A program made the position numbers and the translations under genes. Shown one piece after another: positions 44,929 through 58,273 of a stretch of 64,000 nucleotides of DNA. The notes under the pieces were generated by a model. The model saw only the letters and a list, made by a program, of their open reading frames with translations, did no database searches and was not told the origin of the DNA. The DNA comes from Arthrobacter sp. QXT-31. GTDB lineage: Bacteria; Actinomycetota; Actinomycetes; Actinomycetales; Micrococcaceae. The stretch covers positions 1,736,001 to 1,800,000 of the forward strand of contig NZ_CP019304.1 in NCBI RefSeq assembly GCF_001969265.1, given 5' to 3'. The number at the start of each line of letters is the position of its first letter. Positions within the stretch are counted from its first letter, which is position 1.

Positions 44929-46530
44929 CTAGGCCTCCGGCACGGGCGCACCCTGGCCGTTGCGGATGCGCTGGACCATGGCCGTGGTGGAGCGCTCGGC
45001 GACGTAGTCGAGGATGGTGACTGTGCCGCCGTAGGCCTCCACCGCTTCGGTTTCGGCCAGCATCTCCGGCGTGTAGTCCCCGCCCTTGGCGTAGATTTCC
45101 GGGCGCAGCTGCTCGATCAGGGGAATCGGCGTCGCGGTATCGAAAACCGTGACGTAGTCCACGCAGCTCAGGGCGGCGATCACGGCGGCCCGGTCTGCCA
45201 CGCTGTTGATGGGACGGTCCGGCCCCTTGAGCTTTCGTACTGAGTCGTCACTGTTGAGTGCCACCACCAGGATGTCACCCAGCTGTTTGGCCTGGTTCAG
45301 GTACCGGGTGTGCCCCCGGTGCAGCACATCGAAGCAGCCGTTGGTCAGCACCACGCGCTGGCCGTCGCTGCGGTGCGCGCGGATGTGGCGTTCCAGTTCA
45401 TCGGCGGCCAGCGCGGTGTCCGCGAAGCTTTCCAGGTAGCGGCCCAGTTCGTCCGTGCCGCAGACCGATGTCCCCGGAAGGTGGACCACCACGTCCGCGG
45501 CAGCCTGCGCCAGGTCCAGGCTGGCCGTCAGCGGCAGCGACGCGGCCCGCGCGAGGGTCAGGGCCGCCACGAACGTATCGCCCGCGCCTGAGGCCTGCTT
45601 CTCGGTGGCGGGCCGCGCCCAGGTCCGGTGCGGGTTTCCGGCGGACGGAATCAGGACGGTCCCGTCCCGGTCCAGTGTGACCACGACGGCGCGTGCACCG
45701 GTAGCCTGCAGCAGCTCGCTGCTGTGCTGGGTCACCACTGCCGCACGTTCGGGTCCGTTGCCGAGCCGGAGGTCCAGCATCCTGGCCGCCTCCTGCGCGT
45801 TGGGGGTGACCAGGTCCGGCGCCAGCGCTGCCCACGGGCGCGGATCGTGGGCGTCCACCACCACCAGGGTGTCCTCCCCGCGCCGGGCCAGGGTTTCAAT
45901 GAGCCGGTTCCGGACCGGCTCCGCAAGGACGCCCGTTCCGTAGTCACAGATCACCACCGCGTTCTGCTGTCCGACGGCGGCCGGAACGGCCGCCTCGAAC
46001 GCCGCCAGGGCGTCGGCCGGGACAGTTGCCGCGGAGTCGTCGAAGCGCAGCAGGACCTGGCCGCCGCTGCTGATCCGGATCTTTGTGGTGGTGACCATGT
46101 CCGGGTGCTCGGCCAGCAGCGCCGTGTCCACACCGGCCGCGTCCAGTTGGCGCCTGAGCTCCGTGCCGGCGTCGTCCGTTCCGACGATTCCGGCCACGCT
46201 GACGCGGGCCCCCAGGGCAGCCAGGTTCATGGCGGTATTGGCCGCACCGCCGGGGGCAAAGTCCCGCCGGGCGATGTCCACCACGGGAGCCGGAGCCTCA
46301 CGGCACATCCTGTCGATGGTTCCGCTCCACCAGCCGTCGAGCATGAAGTCGCCCACAACCGTGATGGCCGGAGCCTCCTCCGCCAGCCTGCGGGGAAGCC
46401 AGGCTGCCAGGCCGCGCTGTTCTGAAAGCACTGGTTCTGGGAGCACTGGCTCTGACAGCACCGGTTCAGAATGCGTTGTGGTGCTGTCGTCCCCGGCGGC
46501 TCCCCCGGTGCCGGGTGCCGTGGCGGTCAT
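44929..46530 (-). CDS. HldE-like bifunctional heptose kinase/nucleotidyltransferase (copy 1)
   Basis: A 533-residue fusion. The N-terminal PfkB/ribokinase domain (about 45-360) has DFAPGGAANTAMNLAALGAR and the anion-hole motif ASGAGDTF; the C-terminal nucleotidyltransferase (about 395-533) has TNGCFDVLHRGHTRYL with HxGH at 404-407. HldE phosphorylates D-glycero-D-manno-heptose 7-phosphate at C1 and then activates it with ATP. The first 40 residues are an added tail with a threefold SEPVL repeat, encoded by 15-base units. The ATG at 46530 overlaps the aldehyde dehydrogenase stop by 4 bases. Confidence 0.88.
   Translation of the reverse strand: MTATAPGTGGAAGDDSTTTHSEPVLSEPVLPEPVLSEQRGLAAWLPRRLAEEAPAITVVGDFMLDGWWSGTIDRMCREAPAPVVDIARRDFAPGGAANTAMNLAALGARVSVAGIVGTDDAGTELRRQLDAAGVDTALLAEHPDMVTTTKIRISSGGQVLLRFDDSAATVPADALAAFEAAVPAAVGQQNAVVICDYGTGVLAEPVRNRLIETLARRGEDTLVVVDAHDPRPWAALAPDLVTPNAQEAARMLDLRLGNGPERAAVVTQHSSELLQATGARAVVVTLDRDGTVLIPSAGNPHRTWARPATEKQASGAGDTFVAALTLARAASLPLTASLDLAQAAADVVVHLPGTSVCGTDELGRYLESFADTALAADELERHIRAHRSDGQRVVLTNGCFDVLHRGHTRYLNQAKQLGDILVVALNSDDSVRKLKGPDRPINSVADRAAVIAALSCVDYVTVFDTATPIPLIEQLRPEIYAKGGDYTPEMLAETEAVEAYGGTVTILDYVAERSTTAMVQRIRNGQGAPVPEA
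46421..46465 (-). repeat. three 15-bp tandem units in the HldE-like N-terminus
   Basis: Units TCTGAAAGCACTGGT, TCTGGGAGCACTGGC and TCTGACAGCACCGGT (46421-46465) encode the SEPVL-type repeats. They lie near the 5' end of the gene, outside the kinase domain. Confidence 0.85.
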
Positions 46531-47966
46531 GATGCTGCCCCGGCTTGCACGGCACCGGCTGAAGAGCCCGCTGCCGGCGGGGGTGGCGCAATGTGCACCA
46601 CCTTGACCCGGGTGAATTCGTCCAGGAGCTCGGGTCCGTAGCCGAAGCCGTGCCCGCTCTCCCCGCGGGGCTGGGCAGAGCCGCCGGGCGCACCGCCAAA
46701 TACCTCGTTGACCTTGATGGTCCCCGCCGGCAGTGCAGCGACGGCCTGCTGGGCGTGGGCGATGCTGCCGGTCAGGACGGTGGCAGCCAGTCCGTAGCGG
46801 CCGGCGGCGGCGAGGGCGAGCCCCTCCTCGAAGCTGTCCACCACGCGCACCGGGGCCACCGGGCCGAACGTTTCCTCGGCCATGACGTCCATGGTGTCGG
46901 TGCATTCCACGAGGACTGTGGCCGGGTAGAAGGCGCCCGGCCCGTCCGGAACGGAACCGCCCTCCACGGCCCGCGCCCCAAGGCCCAGCGCCTCGGCCAC
47001 GTGCCGCTGGACGGCGTCCCGCATCCGCGTGTCCACCAGCGGCGCGAGCCGGTTTCCGCTGTTCCGCTCCCGGGCCTGCCCCGCGAGGGCCTGGCAGAAC
47101 TGTTCGGCAATGGACCGGTGGACGTAGATCCGCTCCACCGACGTGCAGATCTGTCCGCTGTTGCTGAAGGCCCCGATCGCCGCCTGCTCCGCTGCCCAGG
47201 CCGGATCCACATCCGCATCCACCAGCAGCGGATCGTTGCCCCCGTTCTCCCTGATGACATAGGCGCCTGTCAGCACCGCGGCCCGCGCAATCCGTTCCCC
47301 CGTCTCGCTGGATCCGACGTGGGCGAACATATCAACGTCGGGCTGCTGGGTGAGGAGGGTCCCGACGTCGGCGCCTCCGGTCAGCGTGACCAGCACGTTG
47401 GGCGGAAACACCGGTGCCAGCGCCTCCCCCAGGCGCTTGCCCACATGGGGGCAGCGCTCACTCGGCTTGTGGATCGCGGTGTTTCCGGTGACCAGGGCAG
47501 CGCCGATGAGTCCGCACGCCACTGCCACAGGATCGTTCCATGGCGTCAGCAGGACGGCCATGCCGCGGGGCTCGGCAATGGTGTAGTCGGCTGCCAGCGG
47601 GTTTCCGCGAAGGCTGTGTCCCCGGTGCAGGGGGCCAAGTTCTGCGTACTGCTCCAGCGTGGATACGCCTGCCGCTATGCCGGCAAGAGCCTCTTCCACC
47701 GGGCGCCCGGTCTCCTGCGCGTTCAGCTCCGCCAGCTCCGCAGAGGCAGCATCGAGGGCCGCAGCCGCGGCGCGCAGCAACTTTCCCCGCTCTGCCGGTG
47801 GTGTGGCTGCCCAGCCCGGCTGGGCGGCACGGGCAGCCGCCACGGCTGCCGTCACATCCTCGGGCCCTGCCACGGAAAGGCTGCCGACCATTTCACCGGT
47901 TCTGGGATTCAGGATGGTGAGCACGTCTTCCGCATGGGCCAGGTCGTTGGCGATCGTCGATTGCAT
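46527..47966 (-). CDS. aldehyde dehydrogenase family protein
   Basis: A 479-residue NAD(P)-dependent aldehyde dehydrogenase. The catalytic Cys lies in NSGQICTSVERIYVHR, the general-base Glu in YVIRENGGNDPLLV, and the cofactor loop in HVGSSETGERIA. I chose the ATG at 47966, preceded by GAGGAG. It is the first gene of a two-gene unit with HldE-like copy 1 (4-base overlap), linking it to sugar metabolism by context; its aldehyde is unknown. The C-terminal tail is Ala/Pro-rich. Confidence 0.93.
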   Translation of the reverse strand: MQSTIANDLAHAEDVLTILNPRTGEMVGSLSVAGPEDVTAAVAAARAAQPGWAATPPAERGKLLRAAAAALDAASAELAELNAQETGRPVEEALAGIAAGVSTLEQYAELGPLHRGHSLRGNPLAADYTIAEPRGMAVLLTPWNDPVAVACGLIGAALVTGNTAIHKPSERCPHVGKRLGEALAPVFPPNVLVTLTGGADVGTLLTQQPDVDMFAHVGSSETGERIARAAVLTGAYVIRENGGNDPLLVDADVDPAWAAEQAAIGAFSNSGQICTSVERIYVHRSIAEQFCQALAGQARERNSGNRLAPLVDTRMRDAVQRHVAEALGLGARAVEGGSVPDGPGAFYPATVLVECTDTMDVMAEETFGPVAPVRVVDSFEEGLALAAAGRYGLAATVLTGSIAHAQQAVAALPAGTIKVNEVFGGAPGGSAQPRGESGHGFGYGPELLDEFTRVKVVHIAPPPPAAGSSAGAVQAGAAS

Positions 47967-48172
47967 GTGGCTCCTCACTGTGGATTTGGCCTGTGCCTTT
48001 CGGGGTGGTCGTTTCACCCCTCTCTGAGGTGATCCGTACCCGGGCGCCGGCGGGTTTACACGCGCCGGCAGCAGGAGTTTTCAGAGCTGGCAATACACCG
48101 CCGATGCACCGTATGGTGGGCCCACTGGACCCGTCCCGACCTGAACTGTCCGGAGCCGAGAGGGCTGACACC

Positions 48173-49378
48173 ATGGAACTTTTCAACGCCGACTTCGGCG
48201 GAGCACGCATCACTGGCCAAGGAATCGGCCCGGTCCTGGAGCCCTTCAGCGGCGTATCGCGGATAGCCGTGCTCCGGGGCGGCGGCCTGGGCGACCTGAT
48301 GTTCGCCCTGCCCGCCGTTGCTGCCCTGAAGGCCGCCTATCCCGGTGCCACCGTCACCCTGCTGGGCACGCCGGTCCATGCGGAGCTGCTGTCGCAGACG
48401 GCGGGGCCGGTGGATGAGACGGTGATCCTGCCGTTTTCCGAGGGTGTCCGCCCGGGGCCGGAGGACGACGGCGAGCTCGAACGGTTCTTCGCCGACATGA
48501 GCACCAGGAACTTTGACCTGGCCGTCCAGCTGCACGGCGGCGGACGGTACTCAAACCCCTTCCTGCTCCGCCTCGGCGCCCGGCACACCGTGGGCACTAG
48601 GACCCCGGACGCGGTTCCGCTGGAACGGACCGTGCCCTATCTGTACTACCAGCACGAGCCGCTCCGTGCCCTCGAGGTGGCAGGATTTGCCGGTGCACCC
48701 CCGCTTGGGCTGGAGGCAAGGCTTGAGCCGCTGCCGGAGTTCAGGCAGCAGCTCGCGCAGGACCTGGCCGTGGAGAGCGGCGCATCCGGGAACGGGCGTG
48801 TGGTGGTGATCCATCCGGGTGCGACTGATCCGCGTCGCCGCTGGCCTGCCGAACGTTTCGCCGCGGTGGCCCGCAGGGCCGCCGACGACGGCTTCCAGGT
48901 TTATGTGGTGGGCGACCGCAGCGAAAAGGAACTGGCGGAAACGGTGGTGGAGCTCGCCGTCGAACACGCCCCTGACGGCCGCCCGGCCGTCGAGCCGAAT
49001 GCGGGCCGGCCCGCCGTGGAATCACTGGCCGGCAAACTCAGCCTGGGCGAGCTCGCGGCACTGCTGGCGGGCAGCAGCGTGGTGGTGGCGAATGACAGCG
49101 GACCGCGCCACCTGGCCCAGGCCCTGGGCACACCGACGGTGGGCGTCTACTGGGTGGGCAATGCCATCAACGCCGCACCGCTGGGCCGCAGCCTGCACCG
49201 GATCCATCTCGGCTGGGCCACCCGCTGCGAGGTGTGCGGCGTTGACATGACGCAGGTGGGGTGGACGGCCCCACGGTGTCCCCATGACGAGTCCACCGTG
49301 AAGGCCGTCGAACCCTCAGAGGTTTACGAGGATGTCCTGCAACTCACGGCCACGAGCCCTCTTCTTCATGGCAGATAA
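48173..49378 (+). CDS. glycosyltransferase family 9 protein (copy 1)
   Basis: A 401-residue GT9 protein, the family of ADP-heptose:LPS heptosyltransferases. It has a GT-B layout: N-terminal domain starting IAVLRGGGLGDLMFALPAVA, and a C-terminal donor domain with VVVIHPGATDPRRRWPAERF and VVANDSGPRHLAQALGTPTV. GAGAGGG precedes the ATG at 48173. It is divergent from the ALDH/HldE unit. Its 3' end overlaps the convergent SDR by 35 bases. The acceptor must be other than LPS lipid A if this is a Gram-positive (inference). Confidence 0.92.
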   Translation: MELFNADFGGARITGQGIGPVLEPFSGVSRIAVLRGGGLGDLMFALPAVAALKAAYPGATVTLLGTPVHAELLSQTAGPVDETVILPFSEGVRPGPEDDGELERFFADMSTRNFDLAVQLHGGGRYSNPFLLRLGARHTVGTRTPDAVPLERTVPYLYYQHEPLRALEVAGFAGAPPLGLEARLEPLPEFRQQLAQDLAVESGASGNGRVVVIHPGATDPRRRWPAERFAAVARRAADDGFQVYVVGDRSEKELAETVVELAVEHAPDGRPAVEPNAGRPAVESLAGKLSLGELAALLAGSSVVVANDSGPRHLAQALGTPTVGVYWVGNAINAAPLGRSLHRIHLGWATRCEVCGVDMTQVGWTAPRCPHDESTVKAVEPSEVYEDVLQLTATSPLLHGR

Positions 49379-50045
49379 GCATTTCACGGACTTCGCAGCC
49401 CGTGGGCTGCGACAGTGCGAACAGGATCGCCTGGGCCACGTTGCCGGGGTCGTTCAGGCGTGAGTCGTCCTGCGGTTTGTACTGCTCGGCACGGTCATCA
49501 AAGAAGCGCGTCTTCATGCCGCCGGGGATCATGGTGGTCACGCCGATTTCGCCGCCCGTCTCGGCCGCCAGCGAGTGGCTGAAGCCCACGACACCGAACT
49601 TGGATGCGCAGTAGGCGGTGGCCTCCGGCAGTGCACGCTTGCCCAGCGTGGACGCGATGGTGACCACCCGTCCACGGGACGCCTTCAGGTAGGGAAGGGC
49701 TGCCCGAACGACGGACACCGTGCCCATCAGGTTAACGCCGATGACACGTTCCCACTCCTCCGCGGCCACGTCCTCCAGCTTGCCGCAGCGGTCGATGCCG
49801 GCCGCGGTGACCACCGCGTCCAGCCCGTCGAGGGTTTCCGCCGCCTGCTTCACTGCCTCGGTCACCGCAATCCGGTCCGAGACGTCCACTTCAAACGCCT
49901 TCGCCGCGGAGACGTTCCGGATGTCCCGGTCGAGGACCACCGGGGTTCCGCCGGCTTTCAGTACGGCATCAACGACGGCGGCCCCCAGCCCGGAGGCACC
50001 GCCCGTTACCAGGACCCGGCCGGGCCGGAAAGTCGATTCAGTCAT
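49344..50045 (-). CDS. short-chain dehydrogenase/reductase in the heptose locus
   Basis: A 233-residue classical SDR with GGASGLGAAV, AAGID in place of NNAG, and YCASKFG (YxxxK). I chose the ATG at 50045 for GAAAGGAAAA upstream. It is the last gene of a seven-gene minus-strand run (56284 to 49344) with HldE-like copy 2, GmhA and glycosyltransferases, so it may act on a sugar or nucleotide sugar; no epimerase-type HldD is present and this is not one by motif. Confidence 0.88.
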   Translation of the reverse strand: MTESTFRPGRVLVTGGASGLGAAVVDAVLKAGGTPVVLDRDIRNVSAAKAFEVDVSDRIAVTEAVKQAAETLDGLDAVVTAAGIDRCGKLEDVAAEEWERVIGVNLMGTVSVVRAALPYLKASRGRVVTIASTLGKRALPEATAYCASKFGVVGFSHSLAAETGGEIGVTTMIPGGMKTRFFDDRAEQYKPQDDSRLNDPGNVAQAILFALSQPTGCEVREMLICHEEEGSWP

Positions 50046-50121
50046 GGTTTTCCTTTCGCTTGGGACAAATTTCAAGTTTTCGACGGCGGTTCAGCCGGTC
50101 TTCGCCGGCTGAAGCGCCGGT

Positions 50122-51483
50122 TCAGCTGACCTTCGCCAGGGCGTCCGCGAGGATTGACGTGGACCGTGCCTGGTGGAAGGGCACGGTGACACAGCGGCCG
50201 CCCCAGCTTTCGACCAGGCCGGCCTCGGGCAGGTCCGACGCGCGGTAGTCGCCGCCCTTCACCCAGACGTCGGGCCGCAGGGTTTCCAGGCAGGCCTCCG
50301 GGGTGTCCTCCCCGAAGACCAGGACGGCATCGACACATTCCAGTGCCAACAGCAGTTCCGCCCGGTCCTGCTGGCTGACGATGGGCCGCTGCTCGCCCTT
50401 GATCCGGCGCACCGACTCGTCCGAGTTCAGGCATACGATGAGGCAGTCGCCAAGGTCCCTGGCGGCCGCCAGTGTTCGGGCGTGGCCGGCGTGCAGCAGG
50501 TCGAAGCAGCCCCCGGTGGCCACGACGGTTCCGCCGTTGGCGCGCACCCGCCGGGCTAGATCCAGGGCGTCTTCCTCGCGGCTGTGGTGCCAGACCGGCC
50601 GGTGACGGTCCGGCAGGGCGGAAACCCCGCCGGCGCCGAGGAAGGCGGCCGCTTCGCTGATCGCGAGTTCCGCGGCGTCGCCCAGGCTGCGGCCCTCCGC
50701 CAGGTGGACGGCGAGGCTGGCCGCGAGCCGGTCGCCGGCACCGCAGGGATCGGTGACCTCGGTGCGGGGGGCCGGGATGGTCACGGGCGGGGTATGGCGC
50801 TGGGTCAGCAGGCCGCCCTGGTCCCCCATCGTGACGAGAACCGCCTGGCTTTGCCAGTTGTCGAGCAGTGTTTTTCCGACGGCGGCAATCGCCGCAGGCG
50901 TGGCGGTCCCGGAATCCGCGGCCTTGGCGGCTTCGGACAGATTGGGCGTCACCACCGCGACGCCCGGCACCGGTACGGCGCCGGACGGGTGCGGATCCCA
51001 TACGATCGGAATGTCGCCGGCGCGGGCCCCGAGCAGCTCCCGGATCTCCGGGTTCGCAGCAACGCCCCGTCCGTAGTCGGCCACGATGATCACATCGGCC
51101 TGGCTCAGGGCCCTGAGCATGCCCGCGGTGGCCGCCGGCACCTCCGGCCGCTCGCACCCTTCGTCCACCCGCACCACCGGCTGGCGGCCCGCCCGGACCC
51201 GGGTCTTCACAGGCGTTCTGGTGCCGGAGGGCCCGGAAACCACCCGCACGCCGGCGAGCGCGCCTTCCAGCGCCAGGGAGGCGTCGTCGTCGGAAAGCAC
51301 CGTCACCAGGGTGACGCCGTGGCCGTCCTGGGCCAGCATCCGGGCCACGAGTCCTGCGCCCCCGGCGCGGCGGCGGACGTCCGAGACGTCCACCACCGGG
51401 ACCGGCGCGTCGGGGGACAGCCGGGTTGCTTCCCCGGAGAGGTCCACGTCCAGCAAAACGTCGCCCACCACTGTGATCCTCAC
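50122..51483 (-). CDS. HldE-like bifunctional kinase/nucleotidyltransferase (copy 2)
   Basis: A 453-residue fusion of a PfkB kinase (about 1-285; VRRRAGGAGLVARMLAQDGH, TDPCGAGDRLAASLA) and a nucleotidyltransferase (about 320-453; GGCFDLLHAGHARTLAA, HxGH at 331-334, and DVWVKGGDYRA). It parallels copy 1 but is shorter, without the N-terminal repeat tail. The kinase motif GAGDR replaces GAGDT. GTG start overlaps the GmhA stop by 4 bases. The two copies may serve different heptoses or nucleotides. Confidence 0.88.
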   Translation of the reverse strand: MRITVVGDVLLDVDLSGEATRLSPDAPVPVVDVSDVRRRAGGAGLVARMLAQDGHGVTLVTVLSDDDASLALEGALAGVRVVSGPSGTRTPVKTRVRAGRQPVVRVDEGCERPEVPAATAGMLRALSQADVIIVADYGRGVAANPEIRELLGARAGDIPIVWDPHPSGAVPVPGVAVVTPNLSEAAKAADSGTATPAAIAAVGKTLLDNWQSQAVLVTMGDQGGLLTQRHTPPVTIPAPRTEVTDPCGAGDRLAASLAVHLAEGRSLGDAAELAISEAAAFLGAGGVSALPDRHRPVWHHSREEDALDLARRVRANGGTVVATGGCFDLLHAGHARTLAAARDLGDCLIVCLNSDESVRRIKGEQRPIVSQQDRAELLLALECVDAVLVFGEDTPEACLETLRPDVWVKGGDYRASDLPEAGLVESWGGRCVTVPFHQARSTSILADALAKVS

Positions 51484-52277
51484 GCGCGATCACGCTCCGG
51501 CCCGGGAACGCCCTGGCCCCTGCGGGCCACCTCGGCTTCGAAGGCGCGGCAGATGGCGTGCAGTGCTATCAGGTGCCCTTCCTGCGCGTTGGCCGAGACG
51601 GCATCAATGGCCACCACCTCATCGCAGCAGGAGGCCAGCGGGTTTGGCGCCGGCCCCGTCAGTGCCCATGTGGTGATGTTCAGCCTGGCCGCCACCTCGG
51701 CTGCCCGGAGCAGGTTGGGGCTCTGGCCGCTGGTGGACAGCAGCACGAGGATGTCCCCGGACCGTCCGTGCGCACGGACCTGCCGGGCAAACAGCTCCGC
51801 ATAGCCGTAGTCATTGGCGATGGCCGTGACGGCCGAACTTTCCGCATGCAGGGAGATCGCGGAGAAGGGCATCCGCTCGCCGTCGAACCTGCCCACGAGT
51901 TCCGCGGTCAGGTGCTGCGCCTCGGCCGCGGATCCACCGTTCCCGGCGGCCAGCAGCTTCTGCCCGCTGAGCAGGCGCTGGGCCAGCTCCACGCCCCAGG
52001 CTGTCAGCGTCTCGGCCTGGTTTTCCAGGGACCGCAGTGCGGGAAGGACGTTCTCCAGGTGCGTCCGCACTGCTTCCCTCGAACCGGCCTCCTCTTTCAA
52101 GCCAGCGCCTTTTAAGCCAGCGCCGGCATCCTGCCCGGCCGTGTCCGGGGACGGGGCCCTGTCTTGAGAGGTCAGAGCGTCCGGAGCGGGCAGCTGGTCG
52201 GGAGAGGAAAGGCCGGCCGGAGTGCCAACCCGGTGCATGGCAGGAAGCTCAGCCTCCCGCAGGGATTCCGGAGTCAC
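51480..52277 (-). CDS. GmhA-like SIS-domain phosphoheptose isomerase
   Basis: A 265-residue protein. The C-terminal 185 residues are a SIS domain of the GmhA type (AAGNGGSAAEAQHLTAELVG, then ILVLLSTSGQSPNLLRAAEV); GmhA turns sedoheptulose 7-phosphate into D-glycero-D-manno-heptose 7-phosphate. The first 80 residues are an added Pro/Ser-rich tail with a small GAGLK repeat. GTG start is chosen because GGAAGGAG lies just upstream and it overlaps the glycosyltransferase stop by 4 bases. Confidence 0.9.
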   Translation of the reverse strand: MTPESLREAELPAMHRVGTPAGLSSPDQLPAPDALTSQDRAPSPDTAGQDAGAGLKGAGLKEEAGSREAVRTHLENVLPALRSLENQAETLTAWGVELAQRLLSGQKLLAAGNGGSAAEAQHLTAELVGRFDGERMPFSAISLHAESSAVTAIANDYGYAELFARQVRAHGRSGDILVLLSTSGQSPNLLRAAEVAARLNITTWALTGPAPNPLASCCDEVVAIDAVSANAQEGHLIALHAICRAFEAEVARRGQGVPGPERDRA

Positions 52278-53527
52278 AGTGCCGCTCCTTCCATCGGTTC
52301 GAGGGTGCCGGTCGCCGCGGTGCCTGCGATCGCCAGCTGGTAGGCCTTTTCGGTTTCGGCGGCCACTCTGTTCCACGAGTAGCGCGTCTTCGCCCTCCGC
52401 TCACCGGCGCGGCCGAGCTTCGCCCGAAGCTCCGGACTGGCCAGCAGGGTGACGAGGGCTTCGGCGATGGCTTCGGGGTCCTTGGGCGGCACATGCAGCC
52501 CGGTTCCCTGGTGCACCACGGTGTCCGTCAGGCCGCCCACTGCAGCGGCGACCACCGGAACACCGCAGGCCATGGCCTCCAGCGGAACGATGCCGAAGGG
52601 CTCGTACCAGGGCGTGCAGACCACGGCATCAGCGCTTCGGAACATGCTTGGCATGGCCTCTCTGGCCACTTGTCCCCGGAGCTCCACATGGTCCGCCACA
52701 CCGAGCTCCCGGGCAAGCTCCAGCAGCCTGCGCGCTTCCGGGTCCTGCCCTCCGGCATCCGCTCCGCCGCCCACGATGAGCAGCTCGACGTCGGTGAACC
52801 CCGCTTCCAGCAGGTACGGCAGGGCCCGGATCACGAGGTCCACGCCCTTGCGCGGGACCAGCCGCCCCACGGAAAGGATCCGGTGGGAGCGGGAAGGGGT
52901 GTCGGCCGGGCCGTCACTGGAGAAGACGTCCAGGTCCACCCCGCAGGGAGCAATGGAAACCCGGCGGGTGTCTATCCCCATCGCCCTCAGCTCGAACACT
53001 TCGTCGGAGCAGGTGGCCACGATGCGGTCAGCCGACCTGCCGACGGACGGCTCGAGGAAGCGCCGTTCAGCGGGGCTGGTGTCAGCGGCGCCCTGGTGGC
53101 GGCGCTTGACGGTGCCCAGCGCATGGAAAGTCTGTACTACCGGGACCCGGAAACCGCCCGGCTCACGGCGTGCGGCATCGAGCGCCGCCACACCGGACAT
53201 CCAGAAGTGGCCGTGCACCACGTGCGGCGGCGAGTCGCCCCAGTCCTGGACTACACCGTCCGCCAGTGCACCCATGAAGGGGAGCAGCTCGTCCTTGGGC
53301 ACATGCTCGGCCGGCCCGGCGTCCACGTGCACCACCTCGAGCCGGGGATGCACCCGCACCCTTTGCGGCAGCTCGGGCGCGTCACGCCTCGTGTAGACCG
53401 TGACGCGGTGGCCCCGCCGGGCCAGTGCCGACGACAGGGCGGCAACATGGACATTCTGGCCGCCCGCATCCACTCCGCCGAGCGCTGCCAATGGACTGGC
53501 GTGTTCCGAAATCATTGAGATCTTCAA
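52274..53527 (-). CDS. glycosyltransferase family 4 protein
   Basis: A 417-residue GT-B enzyme. The N-terminal domain holds GGVDAGGQNVHVAALSSAL and VVHGHFWMSG; the C-terminal GT4 domain holds SVGRLVPRKGVDLVIRAL and the donor motif EPFGIVPLEAMACGVPV. The most likely start is TTG at 53527, overlapping the upstream TGA (TTGA), with GAAGGG before it; an ATG at 53515 is possible. Part of the heptose/glycan operon. Confidence 0.92.
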   Translation of the reverse strand: MKISMISEHASPLAALGGVDAGGQNVHVAALSSALARRGHRVTVYTRRDAPELPQRVRVHPRLEVVHVDAGPAEHVPKDELLPFMGALADGVVQDWGDSPPHVVHGHFWMSGVAALDAARREPGGFRVPVVQTFHALGTVKRRHQGAADTSPAERRFLEPSVGRSADRIVATCSDEVFELRAMGIDTRRVSIAPCGVDLDVFSSDGPADTPSRSHRILSVGRLVPRKGVDLVIRALPYLLEAGFTDVELLIVGGGADAGGQDPEARRLLELARELGVADHVELRGQVAREAMPSMFRSADAVVCTPWYEPFGIVPLEAMACGVPVVAAAVGGLTDTVVHQGTGLHVPPKDPEAIAEALVTLLASPELRAKLGRAGERRAKTRYSWNRVAAETEKAYQLAIAGTAATGTLEPMEGAAL

Positions 53528-54633
53528 TGGATATTCCCTTCTCGCGCCGCGGACAGGGCATCCGGTCCGGACCCCTTTACAGCTGCATCCCCCGACGCCA
53601 CCCCTTCCGCGCACTCCCCGCCCGGCCTCCCATCATGATGTGGGCGCGCCGGTTCCGGAAGTAAAAGTCCCCCGGGTGCCACATCAGCCAGCACCTCATC
53701 CCAGTCGGTCAAGAAACGCTCGAGTCCATACCGCTCCAGCGCGGCCTCCCGCGCAACCTTGCCCCGCCGTCGGGCTTCCTCCGGGTCGTTGACCAGCAGC
53801 CGGGCACACCGCCGCAACTCCTCCACGTCAGTGGAGAGGCAGCCCGCCTCCGCCGGCACGGCGCGGCCAGCCTCAGTGGTGTCCAGCGCAAGGACCGGCA
53901 TGCCGAGGTGCATCGCCTCCAGCAGCGCCAACCCCAGCGAGGTCCAGCGGAGCGGATGCAGGTAAACCCGGCAGCGCGCCAGCTCACGGTGGAGCTCCGC
54001 GGTTTTCAGATCGCCCCGCACGGTGAGGCGCGGCGCCGGAATGCCCGTGGCCTCCGCCAGCCCGTCACCGCCCATGCCAAAGACCTGAAGCGGGGCCGCG
54101 GTGGCGAAACGCGGCAGCAGATCGGTGCCGGTCACGCGTCCGCGGCGTACCGGTTCATTCACCACGACGCCCAGCTCCGGGACTTCGCCCGTGTAGAGGT
54201 ACCCGGGGTCCGCGATCCCGTGCTCAATAACCTTCGTTGGCGCGCGGCCGCTGTCCCAGAACAGCTCGTTGAAGTGGGTCACGTGCACGATCGGGATGTC
54301 GCTCTGCTCCCCGAGCGGATGGACGGTGAAGGGGACATCACCTTTGGGCGTGTTGTGTTCCACGTAGACGGCGGGAAGGTCGACGCCGGGCCGGCGGCCC
54401 AGGATGCGCGTGACCTCCGCGGCCTCATCCGGCCGCTGGAGCACGACGGCGTCGATGCTGCCGGCGTCCAGCTCCGCCAGTGCGACCTGCCGCACCGAAG
54501 CGGGCCAGTCCCGCCCCGCCCGGCCCAGCCCCCAGGGCCCTCCCTCAGGCAAGACAGGCAGGAGGTACTCGTGCCGGCCGCGGACAAACGCGTCCGTCCA
54601 CGATCCGTGCACGTGCCACAACAGAATTCTCAT
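53524..54633 (-). CDS. GT-B type glycosyltransferase
   Basis: A 369-residue protein starting MRILLWHVHGSW, with a donor-side motif (RWTSLGLALLEAMHLGMPVLA) as in GT4/GT1-like transferases. A C-terminal Pro/Gly-rich tail of about 45 residues follows the catalytic part. The ATG at 54633 overlaps the GT9 stop by 4 bases. Acceptor and sugar unknown. Confidence 0.88.
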   Translation of the reverse strand: MRILLWHVHGSWTDAFVRGRHEYLLPVLPEGGPWGLGRAGRDWPASVRQVALAELDAGSIDAVVLQRPDEAAEVTRILGRRPGVDLPAVYVEHNTPKGDVPFTVHPLGEQSDIPIVHVTHFNELFWDSGRAPTKVIEHGIADPGYLYTGEVPELGVVVNEPVRRGRVTGTDLLPRFATAAPLQVFGMGGDGLAEATGIPAPRLTVRGDLKTAELHRELARCRVYLHPLRWTSLGLALLEAMHLGMPVLALDTTEAGRAVPAEAGCLSTDVEELRRCARLLVNDPEEARRRGKVAREAALERYGLERFLTDWDEVLADVAPGGLLLPEPARPHHDGRPGGECAEGVASGDAAVKGSGPDALSAAREGNIH

Positions 54634-55706
54634 CGTTTCCGGACCTTTCTCCGTGTGCTGAGCGAGGAGACCCCGCTCAGCAGGCGTTCGACCGCGTCCA
54701 CCACCTGCTCCGGCGAAACAGAGCTGAGGCAGGGATGGCCCGGTACCGGACAGTCGCGTGCACGGCTGAGCCGGCACGGCGCGTTTTGGTCTCCCAGCAG
54801 TTCCAGCGGAACGCCATACGGCGCCCACCGCACTGCCGGGACAACCGGGGAAAACAGGCTCACCACAGGGGTTCCGACGGCGGCAGCAAGGTGTGCGGGC
54901 CCCGTGTTTCCGCTGACCACCACCTCCGCGCCGGCGAGGACGCCCGACAGCGTGGAAAGGTCTGTCCGCCCACCCAGATCGATGGCGGAGGGTCCGGCGA
55001 CGGTTGCCGTCAGGGCGGCTTCACCCGGGCCGCCGGTAACCACCACCCTGTGGCCGGCACCCTCCAGCAGTTCCACGGCCGCCGCATGGTGCAGGGGTGG
55101 CCAGGCCCGGGCAGGGACCGTTGCGCCGGGGTGGACCACCACGTACGGGCCGTCCCCCACCAGGTGCCGGACGTCCGGGGGTTCCTTGACCATGAGCTTT
55201 CCGTCGTCACCGGTCCTGAGCCGGAATCCTGCCGCCTGGGCAATGCCAAGCGCCCGCACGGCTTCCGGCTGCTCCTCCGGAAAGTCCTCGCCCGGCTTGA
55301 GCCGCACGTCCAGGAGCGATCCCGGGTAGTCCGTGGAGGCCCCGGTGATGCGCTCAACGCCGGCCAGCCGCAGGAGGAGCGCCAGCGGAAGCGGCGACTG
55401 GTGGAAGGAGGTGAGGATGACCGCTTCGGTGATGCGGGAATTCCGGACGAAGCCCACCAGGGAGTCCAGGTGCTCTCCCGTCACCGGCGGAGCCGGGTTG
55501 CTGATCCATGGCGCATCCCAGGCAAAGACGTCGGCGACGTTGGGCAGCAGCGAGGCCGCGGACTTGCCCTGTGGCCCGCAAAGCACGACGACGTCGTTGG
55601 GACTGCCGCCGTCGGCCCGCCGTCCGTTCGCCACGGCCCGGACTGCCGGGCCGGCCAGGAGTACGTCACCGACGCTGTCCAGCCGGGCCACGAGGACCCT
55701 GCTCAT
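54630..55706 (-). CDS. glycosyltransferase family 9 protein (copy 2)
   Basis: A 358-residue GT9 protein (VLVARLDSVGDVLLAGPAVR, then VVVHPGATVPARAWPPLHHA and VVVSGNTGPAHLAAAVGTPV). Cys pairs near the C-terminus (APCRLSRARDCPVPGHPCLS) are usual in this subgroup. It overlaps gmhB-like and GT genes by 4 bases. Likely heptosyltransferase by family and context. Confidence 0.93.
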   Translation of the reverse strand: MSRVLVARLDSVGDVLLAGPAVRAVANGRRADGGSPNDVVVLCGPQGKSAASLLPNVADVFAWDAPWISNPAPPVTGEHLDSLVGFVRNSRITEAVILTSFHQSPLPLALLLRLAGVERITGASTDYPGSLLDVRLKPGEDFPEEQPEAVRALGIAQAAGFRLRTGDDGKLMVKEPPDVRHLVGDGPYVVVHPGATVPARAWPPLHHAAAVELLEGAGHRVVVTGGPGEAALTATVAGPSAIDLGGRTDLSTLSGVLAGAEVVVSGNTGPAHLAAAVGTPVVSLFSPVVPAVRWAPYGVPLELLGDQNAPCRLSRARDCPVPGHPCLSSVSPEQVVDAVERLLSGVSSLSTRRKVRKR

Positions 55707-56284
55707 GCCGGTCCTCGAAGCACTGATTCATGAAGTACTGGTTTCCGAAACACTGATTCTGGAAACAACAGGGCAACGGCCTGCTCGAGGTCCGCGGCGA
55801 CTTCGGGGGCGGCCTCGACTTCCTCGGCACGGGTTTGCGGCGTGGGAACCAGGACGCCCCTGGCGCCGGCAGCCGCGGCCGCCTCGACGTCGCTGCCGAT
55901 GTCGCCGATGAACGCCGCCTCCGACGGGTCAATGCCGAGCCGGCGGCAGGCGCTGTGGATCATGCCCGGTGCCGGCTTCCGGCACACGCATCCGTCATCG
56001 GCTCCGTGCGGGCAGACCTCCCAGACGTCGAAGGGCCCCAGCAGGTCCTCCACCCGCGCGTTCACGCTGTCCACCTCCTCGGCGGTCAGCAGCCCGCGGG
56101 CAATACCCGACTGGTTGCTCAGTACACCGGTTGCCAGGCCCATGCTGCGCAGCCCGTCGAGGACCCGCCGCGCACCTGGATACGGCTCGACCCGCGCGGG
56201 GTCACCGTTGTACGGCACGTCAACCACGAGCGTTCCGTCCCGGTCGAACAGCACAGCCTTGAGCGTAGAAGCGTTACTTGCCAT
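55703..56284 (-). CDS. GmhB-like heptose bisphosphate phosphatase
   Basis: A 193-residue HAD-IIIA phosphatase. The DxD motif is VLFDRDGTL (D14, D16); the zinc site of GmhB is visible as CPHGADDGCVCRKPAPGM; SNQSGIARG and GDIGSDVEAAAAAGA complete the core. GmhB removes the C7 phosphate from heptose 1,7-bisphosphate. It is first in the minus-strand run. The C-terminus carries a fivefold-residue repeat (ESVFR-KPVLH-ESVLR) encoded by 15-base tandem units. GGAGGGG precedes the ATG. Confidence 0.92.
   Translation of the reverse strand: MASNASTLKAVLFDRDGTLVVDVPYNGDPARVEPYPGARRVLDGLRSMGLATGVLSNQSGIARGLLTAEEVDSVNARVEDLLGPFDVWEVCPHGADDGCVCRKPAPGMIHSACRRLGIDPSEAAFIGDIGSDVEAAAAAGARGVLVPTPQTRAEEVEAAPEVAADLEQAVALLFPESVFRKPVLHESVLRGPA
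55717..55761 (-). repeat. three 15-bp tandem units at the GmhB-like C-terminus
   Basis: GAAGCACTGATTCAT, GAAGTACTGGTTTCC and GAAACACTGATTCTG (55717-55761). Each encodes five residues beyond the phosphatase fold, near the stop. Confidence 0.85.
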
Positions 56285-56399
56285 ATCCCCTCCGTTCCCC
56301 GGAGGGCAGAGACCTAAACAACCGGCCGGGCACTTCTTCTCGGCTAGACTCCTCGAAAGGCGGCCCGGCAGGGCCGGTCCAAGGAGGAGAAGAACGGCA

Positions 56400-57344
56400 G
56401 TGGAAGCACGGAACGGCAAGCACGAACAACCTGTCCTGCTGGTCCTGCGGGCACTAAAGCTCGGTGACCTGCTGGTTGCTGTGCCGGCGCTCCGCGCGCT
56501 GCACCGCGCTTATCCGGAACACCGCCTTCTCTACGCCGCCCAAGGCTGGCTGGAAGAGGCACTGGAACTCGTGGGCGGGTACGAACTGCTTCCGACCCAT
56601 GGCCTGGATGTTCCAATTCCCATCGATGCAGGCAAGGTGGATATCGCGGTAAACCTGCATGGCAGCGGACCCGAAAGCGAAGCCCGGCTCGCTGCCGTCC
56701 GGCCCCGGACGCTCATTGGCCACCGGACCCCGGAACGGCCGGGCCCGGCATGGATGGAGGACATCCACGAGCGTGAGCGGTGGACCAGGTTGCTGCAGTG
56801 GCACGGCATCGACGCAGAACCTGACGATTTCCGGCTCCTCCCGCCAGCCGTTCCCGGCCCCTGTCCCGGCGCCACTGTACTGCACGTGGGGGCCGCCTAC
56901 GGCAGCCGGCTATGGCCCGAGCACCGCTTCGCCGAGGTCGCCCGCGCGCTCGCCGACGATGGGCACGAGGTGGTGTTCACCGGAAGCACGGGAGAACGGC
57001 CGCGGGCGCTGGACGTGGCCCGGCTGGCCGGCCTTCCCGAGACGCAGGTGCTCGCGGGCAGGCTGCGGCTGGCCGAGTTCATGGCCGCCATCGCGGAAGC
57101 CCGGCTTGTGGTGTCGGCGGATACCGGCGCGGCGCATCTCGCCTCTGCCTACTCGCGGCCTTCAGTGGTGCTTTTCGGCCCGGCTCCGGCCGAGGTGTGG
57201 GGGCCTCCGCCCGGCCCGCACATCGTGCTGACCGACGCCCAGGCACGCCGTGGCGACACATTTGCCGCCACCCCTGATCCGGCCCTGCTGGCAGTCACCG
57301 TGGAGGACGTCCTGTCCGCCGTCGGGCAGCTCCGGCTCGCCTGA
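56400..57344 (+). CDS. glycosyltransferase family 9 protein (copy 3)
   Basis: A 314-residue GT9 protein (LLVLRALKLGDLLVAVPALR, then VLHVGAAYGSRLWPEHRFAE and VVSADTGAAHLASAYSRPSV). Shorter than copies 1 and 2. I chose the GTG at 56400, with AAGGAGGAG upstream; longer in-frame starts run into the divergent gmhB-like gene. It is divergent from that gene with about 115 bases between. Confidence 0.9.
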   Translation: MEARNGKHEQPVLLVLRALKLGDLLVAVPALRALHRAYPEHRLLYAAQGWLEEALELVGGYELLPTHGLDVPIPIDAGKVDIAVNLHGSGPESEARLAAVRPRTLIGHRTPERPGPAWMEDIHERERWTRLLQWHGIDAEPDDFRLLPPAVPGPCPGATVLHVGAAYGSRLWPEHRFAEVARALADDGHEVVFTGSTGERPRALDVARLAGLPETQVLAGRLRLAEFMAAIAEARLVVSADTGAAHLASAYSRPSVVLFGPAPAEVWGPPPGPHIVLTDAQARRGDTFAATPDPALLAVTVEDVLSAVGQLRLA

Positions 57345-57353
57345 CCCCCGCAG

Positions 57354-57408
57354 GTCCTGCCGGCGGGCCAGTCGTGCCGCCGGCGGGCCGGTCCTGCCGC
57401 TAGCGGGC
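57354..57408 (-). repeat. tandem GTCCTGCCGGCGGGCC units around the sigma factor stop
   Basis: Three units (57354-57370, 57371-57390, 57391-57408) with GTC(C/G)TGCC...GGCGGGCC or GCTAGCGGGC. The CTA in the third is the sigma factor TAG stop on the minus strand. Confidence 0.7.
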
Positions 57409-58209
57409 GCTGCCGGTGCTGCCGGCGCCCGCCTCCCCGCTGCGGCCCTCCTCATCGAGCAGCCTGCGCTGCAGCCATACGAGGATCCGGGACAGGCGCC
57501 GGGACACCTGCATCTGGGAAATGCCGAACCGCTTGCCCAGCTCCACCTGGGTCTCCTCGCGGAAGTAGCGCCGGTACAGCATCTCCCGGTCATCAGGCTC
57601 CAGTTCCTGGATGGCCTGGTTGAGGCACACGAGTTCTTCGAGGTGCTCTATCGGCTGGTCGGGCGAGACCAGCCCTTCGCCCATGCTCGGCCCGCCCCAC
57701 GGATCGGGGCTGTCCAGCGAGTCGGGATGCATGCTGCTTGCCGCGGCCTGGGCCTCCCGCACGTCGGCGGCGGTGACCCCCAGTTCCTCCGCCAGTTCCT
57801 GCTCCGACGGAACGCGGCCCAGCGACTGGGCCATGTCAGGGGCGGTGTGCAGCATCTGCGTCCGGACGTCCTGGACCCGCCGGGGCGGCCGCACGGTCCA
57901 GCACCGGTCCCGCAGAAACCGCTTGAGTTCGCCGCTGATCGTGGGCGCGGCGTACGCCGGAAAGCTTTCACCCTTCTCCTGGTCGAAGCCGCGGGCAGCC
58001 TTGACGAGGCCCAGATAGGCCACCTGGACCAGGTCCGAACGCTCCCGTCCGCGGGCAGCGTAGCGCGAGGCAAGCGACTCCGCCAGGTCCAGGTAATTGA
58101 GGACCAGCTGGTTCTCGAAGGCGTCATGCAGGCGGCCCGTGGGAGGCCCCTGCGGGGATGGCCCGCGGGGCGGGCCGGTCACGGAGTAAGAAGGCGGAGT
58201 TTCTGGCAT
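57400..58209 (-). CDS. SigB/SigF-type RNA polymerase sigma factor
   Basis: A 269-residue group 3 sigma factor. Region 2 reads LVLNYLDLAESLASRYAARG...LVQVAYLGLVKAARGFDQEK, region 3 follows (VPSEQELAEELGVTAADVRE) and region 4 ends with REETQVELGKRFGISQMQVSRRLSR. Actinobacterial SigF/SigB members direct general stress genes. No anti-sigma gene is adjacent. I chose the ATG at 58209 for AAGGAA upstream. A palindrome, ATAAGC-GT-GCTTAT, lies 65 bases before the ATG. Confidence 0.93.
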   Translation of the reverse strand: MPETPPSYSVTGPPRGPSPQGPPTGRLHDAFENQLVLNYLDLAESLASRYAARGRERSDLVQVAYLGLVKAARGFDQEKGESFPAYAAPTISGELKRFLRDRCWTVRPPRRVQDVRTQMLHTAPDMAQSLGRVPSEQELAEELGVTAADVREAQAAASSMHPDSLDSPDPWGGPSMGEGLVSPDQPIEHLEELVCLNQAIQELEPDDREMLYRRYFREETQVELGKRFGISQMQVSRRLSRILVWLQRRLLDEEGRSGEAGAGSTGSAR

Positions 58210-58273
58210 TGTCGTGGGTTCCTTCGATCGAAAGGTCGAGAAAGCCTGCGGCAAGACTTAGAAGAAGGAAATC

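What the first reader, a model, noticed from the sequence alone, without database searches (positions are those of the whole stretch)
44929..57344. Nucleotide-heptose and GT9 glycan locus in a Gram-positive
Sequence shows a GmhA-like isomerase, a GmhB-like phosphatase, two HldE-like kinase/nucleotidyltransferases, three GT9 (heptosyltransferase family) proteins and two further GTs, mostly with 4-base overlaps. The pathway from sedoheptulose 7-phosphate to ADP-heptose is classical in LPS-bearing Gram-negatives. Here the host looks like an actinobacterium without LPS. Inference: a heptose-containing cell-wall or secreted glycan, or a heptosylated metabolite. ADP-heptose is also a known immune agonist in other bacteria.
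Basis: partly seen in the sequence, partly recalled or inferred. Interest (0 to 1): 0.7.

Follow-up and report, generated by a model that had tools for sequence, protein, structure and literature searches.

The report
Actinobacterial nucleotide-heptose glycan gene cluster
A soil Arthrobacter without lipopolysaccharide carries what looks like a full set of genes for making an activated seven-carbon sugar and linking it into a glycan, a relative of a little-understood Streptomyces cell-wall-stress operon, so heptose may be an overlooked building block of Gram-positive cell envelopes.

Summary
Key motifs match the E. coli enzymes. [quoted passage not shown]

The cluster is widespread: a seven-gene core (GmhB, GT9B, GT4b, GT4a, GmhA, HldE2, SDR) is in 77 of 80 named relatives; the other three lie at contig ends. 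Distant actinobacteria keep most of it and mostly add a carbamoyltransferase and a GT2.

HldE2 groups with that operon's HldE; HldE1 is a separate old clade.

Best explanation: a cwg-type locus making a heptose-containing envelope glycan or glycolipid. Donor chemistry is supported by sequence; acceptor, export and product are inferred. The Micrococcales form (two HldEs, GT9A, ALDH, no carbamoyltransferase) is a new variant of a known but, in papers seen, chemically unsolved kind.

The parts
44929..46530 (-). HldE1: bifunctional heptose-7-P kinase / heptose-1-P nucleotidyltransferase, HldE-like (533 aa)
   Evidence: PfkB 118 bits and CTP_transf_like 67 bits; TIGR02199 197.2 bits over cut-off, TIGR02198 219 bits under its cut-off of 345; GAGD and HxGH kept, 36% identical to E. 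coli HldE and to HldE2; separate clade from HldE2
46527..47966 (-). Aldehyde dehydrogenase (479 aa)
   Evidence: PF00171 361 bits; in 52 of 80 related loci; of 70 loci of 20 kb or more, all 46 with ALDH have HldE1
48113..49378 (+). GT9A: GT9 glycosyltransferase, convergent with the SDR gene (start uncertain)
   Evidence: PF01075 95.8 bits; nearest solved structure by sequence WaaF 1psw; GD and DSG motifs
49344..50045 (-). Classical SDR oxidoreductase tied to the cluster
   Evidence: PF00106 144.9 bits; in 79 of 80 related loci; in place in 15 of 20 distant loci; Tyr-x3-Lys and a near-invariant C-terminal SWP; not found in the cwg-like operon L170
50122..51483 (-). HldE2: bifunctional HldE-like protein, groups with the HldE of the cwg-like operon (453 aa)
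   Evidence: TIGR02199 183.2 bits over cut-off, NF008454 306.7 bits under its cut-off of 521; alignment A1; tree
51480..52277 (-). GmhA: sedoheptulose-7-phosphate isomerase (start between 52070 and 52277)
   Evidence: SIS_2 79.8 bits; 34% identical to E. coli GmhA, GNGGS, H-x3-E and QE-x-H kept; all 15 PDB matches are phosphoheptose isomerases or DiaA
52274..53527 (-). GT4a: MshA- and sucrose-phosphate-synthase-like GT4 glycosyltransferase
   Evidence: TIGR03449 MshA 263 bits, cut-off 462.5; PDB matches 6kih 201 bits and 3c4q 175 bits (named as sucrose-phosphate synthase and MshA)
53524..54633 (-). GT4b: divergent GT4-type glycosyltransferase
   Evidence: PF13692 40 bits; AlphaFold model pLDDT 84, folds BshA, TarM, SdgB, PimB' among the best
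54630..55706 (-). GT9B: GT9 glycosyltransferase, present in core and cwg-like forms
   Evidence: PF01075 79.5 bits; model pLDDT 90.8, best folds WaaF 1psw, 3tov, WaaC 6dfe; GNTG where WaaC has DTG in 87 of 102 relatives
55703..56284 (-). GmhB: heptose-1,7-bisphosphate 7-phosphatase (start 56284 or 56254)
   Evidence: NF006506 113 bits, cut-off 178; 38% identical to E. coli GmhB with DRDGT and C-x-H...C-x-C-R-K-P; PDB matches include 4pnh, 3l8e, 2gmw
56400..57344 (+). GT9C: GT9 glycosyltransferase, divergent from GmhB (start uncertain)
   Evidence: PF01075 82.1 bits; TIGR02193 heptosyltransferase I 76.2 bits, cut-off 185.3; relative after HldE2 or SDR in 18 of 20 distant loci
57400..58254 (-). 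Neighbour: SigB/SigF/SigG-type sigma factor, linked by position only
   Evidence: TIGR02980 204.5 bits, cut-off 234.35; near the cluster in 56 of 80 related loci; role not shown

Best explanation
This is a Micrococcales form of the actinobacterial cwg-type locus. GmhA turns sedoheptulose 7-phosphate into D-glycero-D-manno-heptose 7-phosphate; the HldE kinase domain makes the 1,7-bisphosphate; GmhB removes the 7-phosphate; [quoted passage not shown] CDP/UDP possible). With no HldD found, the D,D form is used. GT9A, GT9B and GT9C transfer heptose or a related sugar, and GT4a and GT4b transfer other sugars, onto an acceptor on the cytoplasmic side, giving a heptose-containing envelope glycan or glycolipid. 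The SDR (and ALDH) probably adjust the redox state of a sugar in this pathway. By homology to cwg, the product belongs to the cell envelope and perhaps its stress response. Supported by sequence: enzyme families, key motifs, cluster conservation, homology to cwg. Inferred: substrate identity, nucleotide, acceptor, glycan structure, export, SDR/ALDH role, regulation.
For: Families and cut-offs. Motifs shared with E. coli HldE, GmhA, GmhB, WaaC and WaaF. GT9B predicted fold matches WaaF and WaaC best. No LpxC. No HldD over its cut-off: best 90.8 against 274.6 bits. Core of seven genes in 77 of 80 named loci, the three others at contig ends. Twenty distant actinobacterial loci: HldE2 in 20, GmhA, GT4a, GT4b and GT9B in 19 each, GT9C in 18 by clustering (placement); 18 of 20 hold a protein of the GT2-plus-GmhB family (one representative scanned), which ties heptose making to glycan building. 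The published cwg sigmaE promoter is matched exactly in one genome, just upstream of 12 recognisable coding pieces, the gene number given for cwg, with isomerase and bifunctional enzyme at the places of cwgH and cwgI. HldE2 and that operon's HldE fall in one clade.
Against: No chemistry. TIGR02198 and NF008454 scores lie below curated cut-offs for both HldEs; the GT9, GmhA and GmhB equivalog cut-offs are not reached either. No flippase, polymerase or ligase among the cluster genes scanned. No sigmaE-like or sigmaF-like promoter enriched upstream of GmhB (4 and 1 of 68 loci against 2.5 and 0.45 in shuffles). A Streptomyces-like genome with a one-mismatch cwg promoter (G618, L171) shows no HldE or GmhA match in the roughly 17 kb after it, so the promoter is not always tied to heptose genes. 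One cwg gene name (cwgD, 'putative dehydratase') does not fit GmhB, which stands at that place. SCO6185 (cwgG) was picked elsewhere as a gene of very stable transcript level (PMC4630627), which sits badly with a stress-induced role. The cluster is patchy: strong HldE2 match in 57 of 197 family genomes and 7 of 12 listed of the genus.
Confidence: 0.65

Rival explanations
1. The cluster makes a small heptosylated metabolite (a natural product or soluble glycoside), not an envelope glycan.
For: Heptose natural products such as septacidin are named as users of manno-heptose (PMC11573728). No export or polymerisation genes among the cluster genes. A Streptomyces plasmid, pFRL5, carries an HldE relative with radical SAM, P450, GT9 and carbamoyltransferase genes. 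The locus is patchy and a plasmid of Arthrobacter holds an HldE2 relative.
Against: The same core in many families of the phylum and homology to a cell-wall operon fit a structural role better; no PKS, NRPS or nucleoside genes among the window cluster's genes.
Confidence: 0.16
2. The product is a membrane glycolipid (phosphatidylinositol- or diacylglycerol-linked) built by GT4a/GT4b and capped with heptose by the GT9s. This is a sub-case of the best explanation, not exclusive of it.
For: GT4a resembles MshA (263 bits; 3c4q) and also matches PimA and PimB'; the core enzymes look cytoplasmic; GT9 enzymes of LPS work on a lipid-linked acceptor (established knowledge).
Against: GT4a's best PDB match by sequence is 6kih, a sucrose-phosphate synthase, and it is far under the MshA cut-off; no acceptor evidence at all.
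Confidence: 0.3
3. The sugar is not D-glycero-D-manno-heptose: the HldE-like and GT9-like proteins act on another phosphosugar and nucleotide sugar.
For: Kinase domains score 219 and 174 bits against a cut-off of 345; GT9 proteins are under all heptosyltransferase cut-offs; GT9B has N where WaaC has D in the DTG motif. GT9 as a family is not limited to heptose (recalled).
Against: All four pathway activities occur together with GmhA- and GmhB-type motifs; adenylyltransferase domains pass the curated cut-off twice.
Confidence: 0.12
4. GT9 proteins heptosylate proteins (TibC/BAHT-like).
For: TibC, solved with ADP-D-beta-D-heptose (title of 4rb4), is among the fold matches of GT9B.
Against: WaaF and WaaC match far better (E 3e-16 and 1e-13 against 2e-7); no adhesin or passenger gene seen among the scanned genes at the locus.
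Confidence: 0.04

Closest known systems
cwg operon of Streptomyces coelicolor (SCO6179-SCO6190), 'putative cell wall glycan', sigmaE target induced by vancomycin
   Same: In the cwg-like operon L170, GT9B, GT4b, GT4a, GmhA, HldE2 and GT9C match the window proteins at 47-59% identity and in the same order, and a GmhB piece stands before GT9B (matched there through a distant GmhB); its HldE and HldE2 share a clade
   Different: Window lacks the carbamoyltransferase (none in the genome) and the NAD-dehydratase and GT2 genes (no such best match at 36000-64000); it adds SDR, GT9A, ALDH and a second HldE (HldE1); GT9C is divergently transcribed; no sigmaE-type promoter enrichment seen
ADP-L-glycero-D-manno-heptose pathway for LPS core (GmhA, HldE, GmhB, HldD, WaaC, WaaF; E. 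coli)
   Same: GmhA, HldE (twice), GmhB and GT9 families with the key motifs
   Different: No HldD over cut-off, no LpxC; two HldE paralogues; all genes in one cluster with GT4s, SDR and ALDH
Nucleotide-diphosphate-heptose biosynthetic enzymes reported across kingdoms (Tang et al. 2024, not read; seen through PMC11573728 and PMC11461863)
   Same: Didomain kinase/nucleotidyltransferase type; arginine before the STT/STS motif in both window HldEs (ERSTT, ARSTS)
   Different: The strict (F/L)xxGRSTT motif is in 0 of 73 HldE1 and 20 of 102 HldE2 sequences; no activity data here
7-O-carbamoyl heptose of Pseudomonas LPS core (recalled, not searched)
   Same: Distant and cwg-like loci pair the heptose genes with a carbamoyltransferase
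   Different: No carbamoyltransferase in the window's genome

Membership tests
beta-branch NDP-heptose pathway (GmhA, HldE, GmhB) | GmhA: SIS domain with GNGGS, H-x3-E and C-terminal QE-x-H | tested here: met
   Window GmhA has all three; relatives: 100, 99 and 69 of 100 sequences; NCBIfam equivalog cut-off not reached: 154.6 against 276
beta-branch NDP-heptose pathway (GmhA, HldE, GmhB) | HldE nucleotidyltransferase domain TIGR02199 over curated cut-off | tested here: met
   HldE1 197.2, HldE2 183.2 against 181.5
beta-branch NDP-heptose pathway (GmhA, HldE, GmhB) | HldE kinase domain TIGR02198 over curated cut-off | tested here: not met
   219 and 174.1 against 345; GAGD kept in 71 of 73 HldE1 and 102 of 102 HldE2. 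I therefore call both HldE-like, not proven HldE
beta-branch NDP-heptose pathway (GmhA, HldE, GmhB) | GmhB: HAD DRDGT and C-x-H...C-x-C-R-K-P zinc motif | tested here: met
   relatives 71 and 90 of 90; curated cut-off of 178 not reached: 113.3
LPS-type L,D-heptose pathway | HldD epimerase TIGR02197 over cut-off | tested here: not met
   Best 90.8 against 274.6 bits in the whole genome
LPS-type L,D-heptose pathway | Lipid A pathway (LpxC) | tested here: not met
   0 matches in the genome; the same search rang in 4 of 14 control genomes
GT9 glycosyltransferases | PF01075 over cut-off and G-D at the catalytic Asp position of WaaC | tested here: met
   97.2, 83.4 and 80.2 bits against 22; G-D invariant in the alignment with WaaC, WaaF and WaaU; that this Asp is catalytic is recalled
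GT9 glycosyltransferases | Heptose as donor sugar | not testable with these tools
   Needs enzyme assay; all three below TIGR02193/02195/02201 cut-offs
cwg operon | Core genes GmhB, GT9B, GT4b, GT4a, GmhA, HldE2, GT9C | tested here: met
   Seven of the 12 pieces of the cwg-like operon L170 correspond to window genes, six by direct match and GmhB through a distant relative. L170 is unnamed; S. coelicolor itself was not fetched
cwg operon | Carbamoyltransferase, NAD-dehydratase and GT2 genes | tested here: not met
   No PF02543 in the genome; no dehydratase or GT2 of these families at 36000-64000. Hence filed as related variant, not as cwg itself
cwg operon | sigmaE-type promoter and induction by wall antibiotics | tested here: inconclusive
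   Simple motif scan found no enrichment upstream of GmhB; expression not testable

The most novel reading that the evidence does not exclude
The Micrococcales locus runs two parallel heptose donors: HldE2 (Arg before STT in 96 of 102 relatives) supplies a CDP/UDP- or otherwise distinct NDP-heptose to GT9B, while HldE1 supplies ADP-heptose (or, with the ALDH, an oxidised heptose) to GT9A/GT9C, building a two-heptose envelope glycan. It would be a Gram-positive counterpart of the LPS inner core, merged from two ancient clusters.
Probability: 0.2. Interest if true: 0.75.

Novelty: new variant of a known kind. Interest (0 to 1): 0.5.

Why it matters
If right, activated heptose and GT9 heptosyltransferases are a common, conserved part of the envelope biology of many Gram-positive actinobacteria, not a mark of LPS. 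It gives the vancomycin-induced cwg operon, described in 2002 (paper seen only as cited) and without a product in the papers seen, a concrete and testable chemistry: an NDP-D,D-heptose glycan, possibly carbamoylated in many groups. It names a possible role for the NDP-heptose enzymes recently reported far beyond Gram-negatives, whose role in producers was said to be largely open (PMC11573728), and it bears on immune sensing of NDP-heptoses by ALPK1.

Tried and rejected
Wrong frame: the 50072-51493 ORF gave no family; the real HldE2 is 50122-51483.

HldD hidden elsewhere: six epimerase-like matches, all far under the cut-off. The neighbouring epimerase-like gene 58406-59470 is no HldD: TIGR02197 is not among its 17 NCBIfam families.

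Carbamoyltransferase elsewhere in the genome: none.

Stress-sigma promoter upstream of GmhB: no enrichment over shuffles for SigF-like or sigmaE-like patterns in 68 loci (the script stopped with a key error after these counts, and the planned upstream alignment was not made).

Literature on heptose in Arthrobacter or Gram-positive walls: the listings of full-text searches showed nothing that describes this cluster; some searches gave the cwg papers. A Frankia study reports a gene named ADP-heptose:LPS heptosyltransferase raised by salt (PMC5563000, passages); I could not tie it to this cluster. A survey of monosaccharide pathways places ADP-linked heptose in Gammaproteobacteria plus Helicobacter (PMC7725333, passages).

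HldE1 and SDR homology searches list the best 120 of 3966 and 7996; where a name is given these are Arthrobacter, Pseudarthrobacter or Micrococcaceae, and they did not help with function.

Solved-structure search with the ALDH (E <= 1e-60): one match, a putative aminoaldehyde dehydrogenase; no substrate drawn from it.

Residue before STT by a stricter pattern: read in most HldE1, but 79 of 102 HldE2 were left unread, so only the count is used for HldE2.
Full report
Observation. The window lies at G000:C1:1736001-1800000 of a 5.04-Mb single-contig genome. Reading the stretch in six frames and scanning Pfam and NCBIfam gives, from low to high coordinate: HldE1 (44929-46530, -), ALDH (46527-47966, -), GT9A (about 48113-49378, +), SDR (49344-50045, -), HldE2 (50122-51483, -), GmhA (51480 to 52070-52277, -), GT4a (52274-53527, -), GT4b (53524-54633, -), GT9B (54630-55706, -), GmhB (55703-56284, -), GT9C (about 56400-57344, +), then a SigB/F/G-type sigma factor (57400-58254, -). 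Six of the seven junctions of adjacent same-strand genes allow 4-base overlaps. The three GT9 matches of the genome are all here, and so are its two TIGR02199 matches.

Are they what they look like? HldE1 is 36% identical to E. coli HldE and to HldE2; HldE2 is about 36% identical to E. coli HldE in a tblastn match. GAGD (kinase) and HxGH (nucleotidyltransferase) are kept. The nucleotidyltransferase domains pass the curated TIGR02199 cut-off; the kinase domains and the full-length HldE model do not reach theirs. GmhA (34%) and GmhB (38%) keep the E. coli motifs. GmhA's 15 PDB matches are phosphoheptose isomerases or DiaA; GmhB's six include three heptose bisphosphatase sequences, two unnamed HAD-type proteins and HisB. 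The three GT9 proteins keep the G-D that is catalytic in WaaC (recalled). An AlphaFold model of GT9B (pLDDT 90.8, 29-sequence alignment) matches WaaF, a Veillonella GT9 and WaaC best. GT4a is nearest by sequence to 6kih (a cyanobacterial sucrose-phosphate synthase) and to MshA; the GT4b model (pLDDT 84) matches BshA, TarM, SdgB and PimB' among the best. The genome has no LpxC match, no HldD over the cut-off and no carbamoyltransferase match.

Distribution. An HldE2 match of E 1e-46 or better is present in 57 of 197 genomes of the family and in 7 of 12 listed of the genus; matches of 326 bits or more are in 22 of 296 genomes drawn from the phylum, own genus included. The seven-gene core GmhB, GT9B, GT4b, GT4a, GmhA, HldE2, SDR is found in 77 of 80; 76 of these show it in this order on one strand, and L119 has GT4b displaced. 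The three misses (L062, L087, L089) are at contig ends. HldE1 occurs in 68, GT9C in 63, GT9A in 62, SigF in 56 and ALDH in 52 of 80. Of 70 loci of at least 20 kb, 55 have both GT9A and GT9C and 10 have neither; all 46 with ALDH have HldE1 (the loci are related, so the Fisher p-values there overstate independence).

Distant forms and cwg. I took 20 stretches around HldE2-type hits from other families, plus 7 around other HldE hits. In the 20, by clustering, HldE2 is in 20, GT9B, GT4b, GT4a and GmhA in 19 each, GT9C in 18; the SDR stands next to HldE2 in 15, is missing there in four (L129, L130, L134, L136), and L139 ends before it; GT4a and GT4b, or GT4b alone, stand apart in L142, L145, L146 and L140. 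Two further families are found in 18 of 20 each: a carbamoyltransferase and a GT2 protein with the GmhB domain at its C-terminus (one representative of each scanned; in L139 GT2 and GmhB are called as separate genes). Literature searches for recalled S. [quoted passage not shown] cwgE called a putative heptosyl transferase of a vancomycin-induced operon (PMC5882110, passage); a sigmaE target of 12 genes with a printed promoter (PMC6767563, passages); first gene raised by salt (PMC13011467, passages); against a purely stress-induced role, SCO6185 chosen as a gene of very stable transcript level (PMC4630627, passages). Hong et al. 2002 was not read, only seen cited. I used the printed promoter as a pattern in 392 genomes of the genus of G441, which by size and promoter looks like Streptomyces: 6 match with up to 2 mismatches, one exactly (G728). 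In G728 the promoter is followed, within about 200 bases, by NAD-dehydratase, carbamoyltransferase, GT2, GmhB, GT9B, GT4b, GT4a, GmhA, HldE2, GT9C, GT2, GT2: twelve pieces, agreeing with cwg in number and with cwgE, cwgH and cwgI in kind and place; cwgD is named a dehydratase where GmhB stands, which does not fit by name. Identities of the six directly matched pieces to the window are 47-59%. G728 has no name; that it is S. coelicolor or a close relative is inferred from the promoter. No SDR was found in that operon. In G618, which has one mismatch in the promoter, only GT2, a piece of GmhB and GT4a match, so the promoter is not always followed by heptose genes. A named Streptomyces fungicidicus plasmid carries epimerase/dehydratase, carbamoyltransferase, two GTs, SIS and RfaE side by side.

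Two HldEs. A tree of 74 rows puts HldE2, the HldE of the cwg-like operon and the S. fungicidicus protein in one clade (with the pFRL5 relative; SH-aLRT 100, stem 1.14), and HldE1 in another (SH-aLRT 87; 96 with two distant loci); both are apart from the four proteobacterial rows (quick search, no bootstrap, four outgroup rows only). HldE1 is thus an old paralogue, not a recent copy. In one of the distant loci with an HldE1-like protein (L152) GT9A, ALDH and SDR relatives lie near it too, which suggests that the Micrococcales locus joined a cwg-type core with a second heptose module. The Arg said to give broad NTP use by heptose nucleotidyltransferases (PMC11573728, text part 1; PMC11461863, passages) is found as RS[TS][TS] in 96 of 102 HldE2 but 21 of 73 HldE1 sequences (the pattern was sought anywhere in the protein); a stricter count of HldE1 gives His in 35, Arg in 20, other or unread in 18. 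In the window both carry Arg, which weakens a simple split of roles. GT9B carries N for D in the DTG motif in 87 of 102, so its donor or binding may differ from that of GT9A and GT9C.

Mechanism. Steps supported by sequence: sedoheptulose 7-P isomerase, heptose 7-P kinase, bisphosphatase, heptose 1-P nucleotidyltransferase, three GT9 and two GT4 transferases, all cytoplasmic in type. Inferred: the D,D configuration (from missing HldD), ADP as main nucleotide, an envelope glycan or glycolipid as product, SDR and ALDH as modifiers of a sugar, stress regulation. The GT2-GmhB fusion and the unbroken cluster speak for heptose being built into a glycan rather than catabolised. Export and anchoring are unknown.

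Novelty. The kind (cwg) is known genetically and the enzyme families are known; in the passages seen none states a heptose glycan as its product, and searches showed no description of the Micrococcales form with two HldEs, GT9A and ALDH (open-licence papers only). I rate it a new variant of a known kind, of moderate interest because it makes an old open question (what cwg makes) directly testable.

Noticed in passing
G000:C1:1807534-1808199 (L179:1351-2016, -), about 7.5-8.2 kb beyond the window end: A GmhA-like SIS protein in which the GmhA motif residues are replaced (GSAGS, Q for H, RE-x-Q for QE-x-H): probably a catalytically dead paralogue.
   Followed up: partly
window 57400-58254: A SigB/SigF/SigG-type sigma factor gene sits near the cluster in 56 of 80 related loci but by clustering in 3 of 20 distant ones; no promoter motif linking it to the cluster was found.
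   Followed up: partly
L172 (NZ_AP024649.1, 87950-107237): A 1.0-Mb plasmid of Arthrobacter sp. StoSoilB13 encodes an HldE2 relative at 59% identity in two pieces, so the locus or part of it can lie on megaplasmids.
   Followed up: no
L120 (Aeromicrobium phragmitis): HldE1 and HldE2 of this Nocardioidaceae locus both nest among Micrococcaceae: transfer of the cluster, or contamination.
   Followed up: no
L173:1039-13966 (Streptomyces sp. F8 plasmid pFRL5): An HldE relative lies among radical SAM, P450, SHMT, GT9, carbamoyltransferase, GDSL and carbon-nitrogen hydrolase genes, like a heptose natural-product cluster; an aminoglycoside phosphotransferase family gene is annotated next to it.
   Followed up: no
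window 43906-44862: A spermidine-synthase-like protein (NF037959, 65.9 bits, cut-off 40) lies beyond HldE1; its family and that of the neighbouring LysR regulator are each in 15 of 80 related loci.
   Followed up: no
A7, C-terminus of the SDR family: The cluster SDR ends in a nearly invariant Ser-Trp-Pro tail across families, a possible marker of this SDR group.
   Followed up: no
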